From an uncultured Clostridia bacterium (GTDB lineage: Bacteria > Bacillota > Clostridia > UBA1381): 64,000 bases of DNA. The translations under genes were made by a program, and so were the position numbers. The number at the start of each line of letters is the position of its first letter. The stretch's first letter is position 1. Below are positions 3,675 to 52,300 of this stretch, piece after piece. A model generated the notes under the pieces. That model searched no databases. It was not told the origin of the DNA and saw only the letters and a list, made by a program, of their open reading frames with translations. The stretch lies in contig CANRJY010000004.1 in NCBI GenBank assembly GCA_947631085.1, positions 62,001 through 126,000 on the forward strand. The letters are read 5' to 3'.

Positions 3675-3763
3675 GGAGAAGTATCGAAGTGGTCATAACG
3701 AGCCGCACTCGAAATGCGGTCGTCCGCAAGGGCGCGTGGGTTCGAATCCCACCTTCTCCGCCA
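3675..3763 (+). tRNA. tRNA-Ser (CGA)
   Basis: Acceptor arms GGAGAAG (3675-3681) and CTTCTCC (3753-3759) pair perfectly, with discriminator G and encoded CCA (3761-3763). Anticodon stem CCGCA/TGCGG encloses loop CTCGAAA, giving anticodon CGA. The long variable arm (about 3718-3735) is the class II form expected for serine. The T arm carries GGTTCGAATCC. Confidence 0.95.
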
Positions 3764-3769
3764 GTCTAC

Positions 3770-3846
3770 CGAGATGTGGCTCAGTTTGGTAGAGCACTAC
3801 GTTCGGGACGTAGGGGCCGCAGGTTCAAATCCTGTCATCTCGACCA
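3770..3846 (+). tRNA. tRNA-Pro (CGG)
   Basis: Acceptor CGAGATG (3770-3776) pairs with CATCTCG (3836-3842), followed by encoded ACCA. Anticodon stem CTACG/CGTAG encloses TTCGGGA, anticodon CGG. It lies 6 bp after tRNA-Ser and is surely cotranscribed with it. Confidence 0.95.
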
Positions 3847-5616: not shown

Positions 5617-5646
5617 TAAAAAACGGCGCCGAGCGCCGTTTTTTTA
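5617..5646 (-). terminator. rnpB terminator
   Basis: AACGGCGC/GCGCCGTT stem (5622-5629 with 5633-5640) with A and T runs on both sides, so it could act in either direction. It lies about 10 bases beyond the rnpB 3' end. Confidence 0.85.
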
Positions 5647-5655
5647 ATTTCAAAA

Positions 5656-6215
5656 TGCCGAGCAAATCTGTAAGCCGGGTTCTGTATTTGACGATTATCT
5701 ATCTCGGCGCATCGTTGCCGATACGCTCCAGCCTTGCGAGGGAAAACGCCGAGCAGGCTTAACTTTCCCAAAGTTGCTCCGAATGGGGTTTACACGGGAC
5801 TTCAGTCGCCATCGTCCCCGTGCGCTCTTACCGCACGTTTCCACACTTACCCGCATAAAATGCAAAAATGCTTGATTCCGCGTCAAAATCGAGTGCAGGT
5901 CGGTTTATGGGGTATCCGCCGCGTACTGAATGTACACATGGATCTTCGCAGACCAAGATGCGTCGATTTAAATGCGCGATTCCGCGTCAAAATCGAGTGC
6001 AGGTCGGTTGACGGGGTATCCGCCGCGTACTGAATGTACGCAAGGATGCGCCGGAGACCGAGATGTGCCGATTTTGGCGCGGAAGCGGGCGTTTTTTTTC
6101 TGTTGCACTATTTCCTTGGAGTCGCCTCCACCGGCCGTTAGCCGGCATTCCGCTCTGTGGAGCCCGGACTTTCCTCACTCTTATATTAAGAGCGCAATCG
6201 TCTGACTTACTCGGA
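5656..6215 (-). ncRNA. rnpB: RNase P RNA with an enlarged P12 region
   Basis: Catalytic RNA of ribonuclease P, which removes tRNA 5' leaders. On the minus strand the hallmark 5' core GAGGAAAGUCCGGGCUCC and the 3' core ACAGAACCCGGCUUA are intact, as is GUGCGGUAAGAGCGCAC. Helix P1 forms between 6204-6214 and 5658-5668 over 11 pairs, which fixes both ends to within a few bases. The length of about 560 nt is well above the usual 350-420. The excess lies in the P12 arm, where a 104-nt unit is present twice in tandem. The first arm pairs UUCCGCG with CGCGGAA and then a 12-of-13-bp helix; the second copy can form a similar but weaker arm. Confidence 0.95.
5874..6081 (-). repeat. Tandem duplication inside rnpB P12
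   Basis: Two 104-bp units, 5874-5977 and 5978-6081. They begin with an identical 32-bp stretch and share another identical block of about 25 bp, with divergence mainly in the last 45 bp of each unit. Confidence 0.85.
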
Positions 6216-6247
6216 TATTGCAATTATAAACCAATAAATACGCCTTG

Positions 6248-7453
6248 TCAACCGTTTATTTTCGCGGCGATCCTGTCAAGAATGACTTCCGCAACCTTGT
6301 CCTTCGTCATAATATCGAAGCTCTCCTCTCCCTCGGGAGTGATTACGGTTATGACGTTTGTATCGACTCCGAAGCCCGCGCCCGCGGTGTTTAAATCGTT
6401 TGAAACTATCATATCAAGATTTTTGCTCTCGAGCTTTTTCTTCGAATTTTCGACGGCATTTTCCGTTTCCATAGAAAATCCGCATAGGAACTGACCGTTC
6501 GGCTTGTGCTCGCCGAGATATTTTAAAATGTCCTTCGTCCTCTCAAGTTCAATCGACATATCCTCTCCGCTTTTCTTTATTTTATTGCCGCTCACGGTTT
6601 TGGGTCTGTAATCCGCGACAGCCGCCGCTTTTATTATCACGTCCATACCGTCCGACACGGACGTTACCGCATCGAACATATCCGCCGCGCTGACGGCGTT
6701 TATCACATTTACAAACAGCGGCGGTTCCGATTCGGTTTTTCCCTTGACAAGAGTCACCTCCGCGCCTCTGAGCATGGCGTTTTTCGCTATGGCAAAGCCC
6801 ATTTTTCCGCTTGAACGGTTTGTGATAAAACGCACAGGGTCAATCGCCTCGCATGTTGCTCCGGCGGTTACGAGTATCTTTTTACCCGCCAAATCCTTTT
6901 CGTGCGCTGTTTCTTTTAAAATATACTCAAACAAAACACTTTCCTCGGGCATCCTCCCGTCGCCGATATCGCCGTTTGCAAGCATACCCGTATCGGGTGT
7001 AACTATCTCATAGCCGTAGCCGGCGAGCTTTTTCAGATTATCCCGAACGATCGGATTATGATACATATTGTGATTCATAGCCGGAGCGATTATCTTTTTG
7101 CACGGACACGCCATAACCGTGGTCGTCAGCATATCGTCGGCTATTCCGTTCGCGATTTTTCCTATAACATTCGCGCTTGCCGGAGCAATCATAACCGCGT
7201 CCGCCTGCTTCGCAAGCGCGACGTGCTCCACGCTGTACTGAAAATTCCTGTCGAACGTGTCGATAAGGCACTTGTTGTTTGTGAGCGTTTCAAATGTTAT
7301 CGGATTTATAAAATTGGCGGCGTTTTTTGTCATAAGCACATGTACGGTACAGTGCTGCTTGACAAGCAGCCGCGCCAAATTCGCGGTTTTATACGCCGCG
7401 ATACTCCCCGTCACGCCCAAAAGAACGGTTTTTCCTTTCAGCATTTCCTTCAC
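6248..7453 (-). CDS. coaBC: Bifunctional phosphopantothenoylcysteine synthetase/decarboxylase
   Basis: Carries out two steps of coenzyme A synthesis: CTP-dependent joining of 4'-phosphopantothenate with cysteine (CoaB) and flavin-dependent decarboxylation to 4'-phosphopantetheine (CoaC). 401 residues, normal for the fusion. The CoaC half (about 1-185) shows GVTGSIAAYK, the substrate motif APAMNHNMYHNP and the flexible-flap region with GDIGDGRMPE. The CoaB half begins KILVTAGATCEAIDPVRFIT with NRSSGKMG, and later carries the dimer-interface lysine motif NKIKKS. The RBS gaaggaaa precedes ATG 7453. Its promoter region contains copy A of the 109-bp repeat. Confidence 0.97.
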   Translation of the reverse strand: MKEMLKGKTVLLGVTGSIAAYKTANLARLLVKQHCTVHVLMTKNAANFINPITFETLTNNKCLIDTFDRNFQYSVEHVALAKQADAVMIAPASANVIGKIANGIADDMLTTTVMACPCKKIIAPAMNHNMYHNPIVRDNLKKLAGYGYEIVTPDTGMLANGDIGDGRMPEESVLFEYILKETAHEKDLAGKKILVTAGATCEAIDPVRFITNRSSGKMGFAIAKNAMLRGAEVTLVKGKTESEPPLFVNVINAVSAADMFDAVTSVSDGMDVIIKAAAVADYRPKTVSGNKIKKSGEDMSIELERTKDILKYLGEHKPNGQFLCGFSMETENAVENSKKKLESKNLDMIVSNDLNTAGAGFGVDTNVITVITPEGEESFDIMTKDKVAEVILDRIAAKING

Positions 7454-49343: not shown

Positions 49344-52300
49344 TTAGTCACGTTTCTTCATGAACATATATATTGATATGAGCGCGCCTGTGGCAAATAA
49401 TACCGAGAGCGTTATCCAAAGAACCGGCATATTATTGTCTCCGGTTTTCGGCGTATTGTTTTCCGGCGGACCAATCTGCCATCTCGGCGGTATTATCTCG
49501 CTGTCGGAAGGAACTGCCGTCGCTTCCGGACTTGTTTCGATAATTACTGACGGCGCCGCCGTCGGAGACGGAGCCTGTGTGACCGGTATGGCCGTAACTG
49601 TCGGCGCGGTCGGCGCGGGTGTTGACATGCTCGGTACCGAAGTAGCAGCCGGAGCGGCTGTCGGCGTTGGAGTTGCCCATGTCGTTACCGGTGTTTGCGT
49701 CGGCACGGGCGTTGCTGTCTGCATCGGAGTCAGTGTCGGCGCGGGTGTAGGCGTTGACGCCGGTTTAAATCCGCCTCCGCCGCCCGAGCTCGGTCTCCTT
49801 GTCGGTGACGCTGTCGCGGACGGAGTTGAATGCGGCGCCGCCGTCGGCGTCGTGGTCGGATTAACCGTCGGATGCGGAACGGATGTCGGCTTTATGGTTG
49901 GTGATGCCGTCGGATTTGACGGATCGTGTCCTCCGGGATCTTGCGTCGGAGCCAAAGTGCCGTTTGGCTCCGGCGTTTTTGCGTCCGGCGTTGCCGTCGG
50001 AACGGGAGTCGCCGTCGGTGCCGGTGTAGGCGTTGGCGTCGGAGTTGGCGTCGGTGTAGGTGTTGCTGTCGGAGCTGCCGTCGGCGTTGCTGTCGGTGTT
50101 GGCTCCGGCGTTGCTGTCGGATTTACAGTCGGTGATACCGTCGGATTTGACGGATCGTGTCCTCCGGGATCTTGCGTCGGAGCCAAAGTGCCGCTCGGTT
50201 CAGGCGTTTCTGCGTCCGGCGTTGCCGTCGGCGTTGGCGTTGGTTCAGGTGTAATCTCGGGCGTTGCCGTCGGTGTCGCTTCGGGAGCGGCGGACGGTGA
50301 CGCTGTCGGCGTCGGTACCGGTGTTGCAGTCGGCGTCGGTGCCGGAGCGGTCGATGGCTCGGGCTCAACATAAGTATTCACATAAGCCGCCGCGTTTACA
50401 CTGCTGCCGGAGTCGGAAATCGTGCCGCTTCCGCTGCCGGTCACCTTCGACGTGTAATTGTCAGCCGCTGTTTCGCTTACTTTATATTCCGTACCCGTCG
50501 GTATATCCTTTATTGTGATATATTCTCCATCTTTCAGCGTGACAGAAGCCGCGCCGTCCGTAAACGTTATCTTTTTCTCCGCTCCCGTCGGAATGCCGTT
50601 TACGGATGTGGGATCACCCTCGTAATCGTACGTTTTGTTCACGTCGCTGCCGTCGAGAGTTATCGTAAATGTAAACGCTCTGTCCGCGTCGCTCGACGGC
50701 GCGTTCACAACCGTTTTGCTGATTGACAGGGCTGTCGGGTCGATACTCGCGCTTACCTGCGCCATAGCATAACGCCTGTCAATATATTTCTTGCCGGATT
50801 CCCCCGCGTTCTTTGTTCCTATTTTGATCGTGCCGCCTGTATAGGGAGCCGCAAAATCACTTATGCTGTGCGAGCCTGCCTCCGTTTCCGGATGAAGTAT
50901 TTCATCGGCTGTCTTGGTATCCGCTTTGAACGTGGTAAATGTGCCGTCCGCGCCGTCGGCAAGCGCGCCCGACGTAATACCGCCGAACCTTATGCCGAAT
51001 CCTTCGCCGCTCACCGGCACTACCTCATACTCGCCCTGAGGCAGACCGTATTTTCCGTAACCGCTGTTGTACGTTATCGAAACCGGAACCGTAACCGCAT
51101 CGGGATCTTCCTCCGGCGTTTCGGGGACGGCGTAGCTTGCGGTATACGTTCCTATTTCCTCATCCCCTGCCGCGTTTTTCTTAACAAGCTTCGCCTTATA
51201 TGTAACGGTCTGACCCGCCGCGTAAGTCTGTAAATATTTCACAACATCCGGCGGAAGTACCATTTCAAACGCGACCTCGCCGCTGACGATGTTGGTCGTT
51301 TTCAGACCCGCGCCTTCGGCGGTCGTCTGTTCGCTGCCCGAAACGGGCTTGAAGCTCTCTTCCCACGGATATACGGCTGTGCTCGTGTCGTCTACCGTTT
51401 TTTCCTCCTTGACAAGCGCCGCGTCCGCTTCCGCTCTTGTCTCATGTTCATCCGATATATACTTAACTGTCAGCTTGGACTGTCTTTGATTTGTGTCCGC
51501 CGTTACGCCCTGATTTTCGGCTTTCTCCCATTTGAATTGAATCTTTCCGAGCTTGTCGCCTTCATGATTTTCTCCGCCCGTTTGCGTGGTCGGCTCTTCT
51601 CCCGCTTCCGAGAGATAGTAATAATCATACTCCTTCACTTGTTTAGCCGGATCGGTCTCCAAGGCGGCGGCGACAATTTCCTGAACTATAGCGTCAAATG
51701 TCGTACCGTTTTCTTCGGCGTATCGTTTCAGATATTCCCAATACCACGAGTTTTTATCTTCGCCCGCGAAATTATCTCTTATCGCTTCGCCGAGCTCCTT
51801 CGCCGCGCCGTCGTCGCTGAACGTCTCACCCATGAATATTACGTCCCGCTCTTCGGGAATTTTCATTTCGGGAATTTTTACATTGACAGCCGTTCTCGGG
51901 AATCCCTTTGACGGGAGATCCGTTATATCGTCAGTGTCATCGTCTATTTTTCGCTGCGCATCGTCGGTACCCGAGGTTGCGTTGGTTCCCGGATCCTTTT
52001 CGGAGAACACATAGTTTTCAAGCTCTAAGTTGCCGTTCGTGAGAACCGCGTTGCCGCCGATGAAGTCGTCCTTCGCCTTGATCTTGATCTGCGCATTCCA
52101 TACGCCGAGCGTGCCTACATCCTCCGAGCAGCCCGGGATCGTCGCGCTTGTCCACTCGAGGTAGTACATACCTTTTTCGGTATCATAGCGAAGTATCGCG
52201 CGGTATCCTTCTATCTTACTGTTGCTGCTAAGATTTATAGCATATCCTTCCGGATGCGTTTCTTTTATATCCTCTTCTACCGTGTCTATAGTGATCTTGC

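What the first reader, a model, noticed from the sequence alone, without database searches (positions are those of the whole stretch)
5874..6081. RNase P RNA carries two tandem P12-like arms
A 104-bp unit is present twice in the P12 region of rnpB, raising the RNA to about 560 nt. The catalytic core, P1 and the terminal motifs are intact. The RNA-proximal copy forms UUCCGCG/CGCGGAA plus a 12-of-13-bp helix; the other can form a weaker arm. The loops have diverged more than the stems, suggesting the duplication is retained and folded rather than a fresh slip.
Basis: partly seen in the sequence, partly recalled or inferred. Interest (0 to 1): 0.6.

Follow-up and report, generated by a model that had tools for sequence, protein, structure and literature searches.

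The report
Mobile hairpin repeats inside RNase P RNA
In a gut-type bacterium, two tandem copies of a short hairpin-forming repeat, apparently mobile and found throughout related genomes, sit in the tip of one arm of the gene for the tRNA-cutting RNA of RNase P; such insertions have precedents, but this repeat family is not in the RNA family library that was searched.

Summary
The repeat is real. rnpB (6213-5655, minus strand) is complete: RF00010, 242 bits, model 1-367, 559 nt, with two ~104-nt units in P12. Its promoter-like and terminator-like sequences are intact, so it is probably expressed. Each unit is a copy of a dispersed ~104-117-nt hairpin element. An independently built covariance model finds both copies (E 1e-6 and 1e-3). 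The genome has about 18 further copies. The only congener searched has 5-6 copies but none in rnpB. The element occurs in 55 of 70 genomes of the bacterial family and patchily elsewhere in the class. Pattern matches also find it in Patulibacter (Actinomycetota). It is absent from Rfam 15. Fourteen of 17 modelled pairs show compensatory changes. One strand folds better in 92 of 94 copies. It usually lies antisense, directly at a stop codon, within ordinary operons. One site is empty in three relatives. Other copies also form ~107-nt tandem arrays, so the rnpB doubling is typical of the element. G006 has a copy in P12 in the opposite orientation. The effect on RNase P is probably near neutral (inferred). 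Precedents exist: Rickettsia palindromic elements in M1 RNA, and cyanobacterial STRR in P12 (recalled). The mobilising enzyme is unknown.

The parts
5655..6213 (-). rnpB, class A RNase P RNA, 559 nt, complete
   Evidence: RF00010 242.1 bits, model 1-367, E 1.5e-77; only rnpB match in the assembly
5876..5979 (+). hairpin element copy A (distal in the RNA), antisense to rnpB, partly degraded in its 3' arm
   Evidence: R1 match 5895-5968, E 0.0014; fold -37.8 on + strand
5980..6084 (+). hairpin element copy B (proximal in the RNA), antisense to rnpB, near-perfect stem
   Evidence: R1 match 5999-6075, E 1.2e-6; fold -65.8 on + strand, z -9.6 (both for 5980-6081)
5850..5856 (-). 3' strand of the host P12 stem and adjoining bases
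   Evidence: CMscan alignment; read directly
6085..6091 (-). 5' strand of the host P12 stem (CGCCCGC)
   Evidence: CMscan alignment; fold of the P12 region
6223..6251 (-). promoter-like TTGACA-17-TATAAT just upstream of rnpB
   Evidence: read; a consensus match, not a test of function
5618..5644 (-). intrinsic terminator-like hairpin plus T run downstream of rnpB
   Evidence: inverted repeat, 12 nt, 100%; fold

Best explanation
The two units in P12 are copies of an interspersed, apparently mobile hairpin element of ~104-117 nt. One copy landed, antisense, in the P12 tip of the single rnpB gene after the split from the sequenced congener. A second copy arose in tandem, as this element often does elsewhere. 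The insert lengthens a peripheral arm away from the catalytic core, and because it is itself a hairpin it folds back on P12 and is tolerated. Shown: element identity, dispersal, tandem habit, conserved fold, one empty site at another locus, an uninterrupted P12 in the congener. Inferred: mobility as the cause of the dispersal, near-neutral effect on RNase P, order of events. Unknown: the mobilising enzyme.
For: Model R1, built from 21 sequences of other genomes, finds both copies: E 1.2e-6 and 0.0014. Pattern scan: 19 of 70 family genomes. R1 in the family: 55 of 70 genomes at E<=0.01. G000 has 18 further places with model R3 (8 of them in its training set, 10 new; 17 of 18 at E<=1e-4), and G001 has 5 at E<=1e-4, none in rnpB. 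The congener's P12 is a plain short stem. Tandem arrays: period 107, 106, 109, ~107 in other families. A 106-bp copy in G018 is missing at the matching site in G020, G024 and G021. Compensatory changes in 14 of 17 pairs, 97.5% of cells paired, 0 of 500 shuffles. G006 carries a copy in P12 in the other orientation, R1 E 1.3e-6.
Against: No rnpB empty site at strain level: the congener's P12 stem differs in sequence. No target-site duplication could be fixed. No transposase was identified. Copy A matches R2 weakly (E 0.082). The rnpB subfamily differs in its outer stem from the commonest types. With R1, the first searches found only 4 G000 places at E<=0.01 and none in G001.
Confidence: 0.85

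Rival explanations
1. Local tandem duplication of a P12 segment kept because both arms help RNase P fold or work.
For: Both copies can fold in the transcript (z -4.9 and -2.9); two-arm fold -90.3 kcal/mol.
Against: The unit is found throughout this and related genomes outside rnpB. Its fold is better on the strand opposite to rnpB. The apex did not diverge (0 of 16) while one arm did (14 of 47).
Confidence: 0.07
2. The dispersed element is an immobile, vertically inherited functional RNA or 3'-end structure (for example a terminator or mRNA stabiliser), and rnpB acquired one by recombination.
For: Strong covariation. 62 of 94 copies have the stop codon of an antisense-lying gene within 20 nt of the element edge, and 60 of 94 lie between two genes both antisense to the folding strand. 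Neighbours are ordinary operon genes.
Against: Copy number varies from 0 to more than 50 among relatives; near-identical copies within one genome; an empty site; presence in P12 in both orientations.
Confidence: 0.2
3. The elements are integron attC sites (hairpin of the bottom strand next to stop codons).
For: Placement at stop codons and folding of the antisense strand.
Against: An integron integrase above the curated cut-off was found in 0 of 70 genomes. Copies are scattered, not arrays of cassettes. Flanking genes look like old operon partners, such as aconitase large/small parts and PTPS/radical SAM pairs. Core boxes do not fit the recalled attC consensus by eye.
Confidence: 0.02
4. Assembly or binning artefact of a metagenome-assembled genome.
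For: Draft assembly, 67 contigs, 83% complete; no reads available.
Against: The copies differ at 16 of 105 aligned columns. The gene is uninterrupted in a 168-kb contig. The same kind of insert is seen in P12 of G006.
Confidence: 0.04

Closest known systems
Rickettsia palindromic elements (RPE) in M1 RNA and tmRNA
   Same: Small (105-146 bp) palindromic repeats inserted in the RNase P RNA gene and thought neutral (passages of PMC2229807, citing Ogata 2002)
   Different: Different lineage and context as far as described in the passages read; RPE also sit in frame inside proteins. Sequence not compared directly here.
STRR repeats in P12 of heterocystous cyanobacteria (Vioque 1997)
   Same: Repeats invade and lengthen P12 and are dispensable for catalysis (content recalled; title and the remark that P12 is sometimes dispensable seen in PMC2858038)
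   Different: STRR are runs of very short units (recalled), not a single ~104-nt structured hairpin
MITEs such as RUP, ERIC and NEMIS
   Same: ~100-200 bp, long stem-loops, high copy number, termini often with TA (passages of PMC2229807)
   Different: Here internal mismatches and an apex are conserved with strand-specific G-U pairing; no parent transposase known
REP elements with RAYT (Y1) transposases
   Same: Intergenic palindromes; GTAG REPs can supply stop codons (passage of PMC3733652)
   Different: Several times longer (REPs 20-40 bp in the abstract of PMC3733652). Y1_Tnp was not found in G034 and G069, which are 98% complete and rich in copies.

Membership tests
Bacterial RNase P RNA class A (RF00010) | score above the gathering cut-off over the whole model | tested here: met
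   242.1 against 100 bits, 1-367
Bacterial RNase P RNA class A (RF00010) | catalytic activity | not testable with these tools
   needs biochemistry
Any Rfam 15 family (for the inserted element) | match to a covariance model | tested here: not met
   0 matches at E<=5 for 5850-6100; in 8 loci holding other copies one chance-like overlap, mir-932, E 2.1, far under its cut-off
MITE-like small mobile repeat | 100-200 bp stem-loop with inverted termini in many copies | tested here: met
MITE-like small mobile repeat | presence/absence at matching sites | tested here: met
   one site, G018 against G020, G024, G021
MITE-like small mobile repeat | target-site duplication | tested here: inconclusive
   type I copies end TA..TA; no duplication could be fixed
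MITE-like small mobile repeat | parent transposase | not tested
   only Y1_Tnp and integron integrase were searched
REP/RAYT | Y1 transposase in the genome | tested here: not met
   Y1_Tnp in 34 of 70 genomes but not in G000, G034 or G069
Integron attC | integron integrase | tested here: not met
   0 of 70 over the cut-off
Integron attC | antisense-strand hairpin directly after a stop codon | tested here: met
Rickettsia palindromic element | sequence homology to RPE | not tested
   no RPE sequence was compared

The most novel reading that the evidence does not exclude
An uncatalogued class of ~110-nt mobile hairpins shared between Clostridia and Actinomycetota is moved by an unidentified enzyme that reads one folded strand with its conserved purine-rich internal mismatch. 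It inserts, oriented, next to stop codons and occasionally into hairpin tips of structured RNA genes, making RNase P P12 a recurrent landing site.
Probability: 0.3. Interest if true: 0.75.

Novelty: new variant of a known kind. Interest (0 to 1): 0.5.

Why it matters
It turns an apparent oddity of one ribozyme into evidence of an abundant, strongly covarying hairpin repeat family that is absent from Rfam 15. Its placement is unusual: one strand, at stop codons, inside housekeeping operons. rnpB gives a clear example of a small, apparently mobile hairpin invading an essential structured RNA. The family also offers a tractable question: which enzyme moves a hairpin that folds best on one strand.

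Tried and rejected
Own-genome BLAST of the insert found nothing beyond rnpB at a useful E-value; only structure-based models revealed the copies. An exact 31-nt pattern had no match in genome contigs. RAYT/REP was rejected on Y1_Tnp and integrons on the integrase model. A dense cassette array was rejected: 18 rows (some the same place on both strands) in 165,822 bases. A Shine-Dalgarno-specific target was considered from G055 flanks and G018 L253 but is not general, because stop-codon proximity is the stronger rule. P12 inserts of G034 and G031 look similar at the apex by eye, but models R1 and R2 did not support them, so they are not counted; G049's insert is not supported either. No match in the plasmid collection or viral contigs. 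Paper searches listed no paper that I recognised as describing this element; most subscription journals are not held.

Dropped rows: 3 of the pattern matches (L078, L079, L082) were left out as not hairpin-like before A1. A1 used 21 of the remaining sequences. A2 used 47 of 83 after removing near-duplicates, and the strand of L120 and L147 was set by hand to that of the model. In one search, 5 repeated places were removed, leaving 94. In one search, 16 of 19 stretches fold like the element and 3 (L158, L167, L169) look like chance. Copies within a genome are not independent. The ORF calls are from a simple home-made caller.

Full report
What is there. rnpB occupies 6213-5655 on the minus strand: RF00010, 242 bits, all 367 model positions, 559 nt. 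It is the only rnpB match in the assembly. A TTGACA-17-TATAAT promoter-like sequence lies upstream and a perfect terminator-like hairpin with T run lies downstream. The insertion in P12 is two ~104-nt units, 5876-5979 and 5980-6084, 92% identical over 78 nt. The transcript can form two arms (-90.3 kcal/mol) or one giant arm (-91.0), which is a tie.

The strand clue. Both units fold better on the plus strand, antisense to rnpB: copy B -65.8 against -43.8 kcal/mol, copy A -37.8 against -33.7. Shuffle z-scores are -9.6 and -4.9 for copy B, -2.9 and -2.9 for copy A. This pointed to an element with its own folding strand.

The element family. A motif seen in the insert (GCAGGTCG, 25-55 nt, CGAGATG) occurs in 19 of 70 genomes of the bacterial family, 32 matches against 3 for the reversed control pattern. 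An alignment of 21 copies (window excluded) gave 15 of 23 pairs with compensatory changes. Model R1 found the element in 55 of 70 family genomes at E<=0.01, with up to 52 matches in one genome, where at most 52 candidates per genome were scored; 56 were listed for G034 at E<=1 in a laxer search. It found both rnpB copies at E 1.2e-6 and 0.0014. On 47 diverse copies, 97.5% of cells in 17 pairs form standard pairs, 14 pairs show changes on both sides, and 0 of 500 shuffles reach any of the five measures; slid controls give 29-58%. G-U pairs outnumber A-C mismatches 104 to 5. The folding strand is the more stable one in 92 of 94 copies. Nothing in Rfam matches the window element at E<=5. In eight loci with other copies the only overlap was a chance-like mir-932 match, E 2.1 and far under its cut-off.

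This genome and its congener. A model fitted to this genome's own copies (R3, which includes the rnpB copies) lists 22 rows in G000: the two rnpB copies, two opposite-strand duplicates and 18 further places, 10 of which were not in the training set. It lists 6 rows in G001, five at E<=1e-4, none in rnpB. With R1, G001 had none. G001's P12 is a plain short stem. All 12 newly listed copies examined fold better on the model strand, and four are ~149-nt branched variants.

Where copies sit. Of 94 copies with flanking genes called, 60 lie between two genes that are both antisense to the folding strand and 3 between two sense genes; in 221 random non-coding windows the counts were 64 and 78. In 62 of 94 the stop codon of the antisense-lying gene is within 20 nt of the element edge. 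In G000 and G001 the neighbours are ordinary genes: Pfam domains of SpoIVA, glutamate synthase, aconitase large and small parts, PTPS/radical SAM, ribosomal L1 and others (10 proteins each). This is unlike gene cassettes.

Mobility. In G018 a 106-bp copy (TAACGTG..CACGTTA) is absent from the aligned site in G020, G024 and G021. One site was tested, and the aligned flanks are only about 70% identical. Within G055 copies are near-identical through the element and diverge at its right edge. Tandem arrays of ~106-109 nt occur at several loci and in other families, so the doubling in rnpB is what this element does elsewhere. Distribution is patchy: 0 of 25 genomes from other families of the order at E<=1e-4, but 22 of 391 genomes across the class at E<=1e-6, 10 of them outside the family. 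A pattern scan of named genomes returned 19 stretches, 16 of which fold like the element: rumen or gut-type Clostridia MAGs, six Patulibacter stretches and two other Actinomycetota. I found no element-bearing plasmid or viral contig by the one search of each.

P12 as a landing site. Of 57 full-length rnpB matches in the family, five exceed 380 nt (G000 559, G006 454, G034 424, G031 390, G049 382). Models support the element in G000 and, in the opposite orientation, G006 (R1 E 1.3e-6; R2 E 0.0013). They do not support it in G034, G031 or G049. Over 59 rnpB loci searched with R2, the only matches inside rnpB were those of G000 and G006; two others lay outside the gene. Two recurrences are suggestive, not proof, of preference.

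What it probably does to RNase P. P12 is peripheral (established knowledge of the RNA's layout). One study says its role is variable and sometimes dispensable, citing cyanobacteria (passages of PMC2858038). Another paper treats its loss as highly unusual (passages of PMC8172020). [quoted passage not shown] I infer a near-neutral extension.

Known precedents. Rickettsia palindromic elements are reported in M1 RNA and tmRNA (passages of PMC2229807). Cyanobacterial STRR lengthen P12 and are not needed for catalysis; I recall this from Vioque 1997, which is not held. The kind of event is therefore known; the element and its lineage appear new within the searches made. REP/RAYT and integron explanations failed on their enzymes. 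The mobiliser is unknown.

Limits.

Noticed in passing
G000 C1:63085-63233 and C1:60688-60837; G001 C16:12767-12915 and C14:16477-16626 (L310, L311, L294, L298): Branched ~149-nt variants of the element carrying an extra GGACAC..GTGTCC side arm.
   Followed up: partly
L153, L156, L159, L162, L163, L164: G+C-rich versions of the same hairpin in Patulibacter, with the same conserved core and placed at gene ends in several cases.
   Followed up: partly
L201-L214 (G055): Copies are mostly followed, in gene sense, by a second small GCCGCC..GGCGGC hairpin and a Shine-Dalgarno-like GGAGG before the next start codon.
   Followed up: partly
window 5876-6084: The two rnpB copies differ almost only in one arm (14 of 47 columns, against 2 of 58 in the rest); no explanation was tested, gene conversion is possible.
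   Followed up: no
window 50013-50345: Cluster of short tandem repeats of 12-36 nt units, possibly a repetitive protein-coding region.
   Followed up: no
window 3675-3846: tRNA-Ser(CGA) and tRNA-Pro(CGG) side by side on the plus strand.
   Followed up: no
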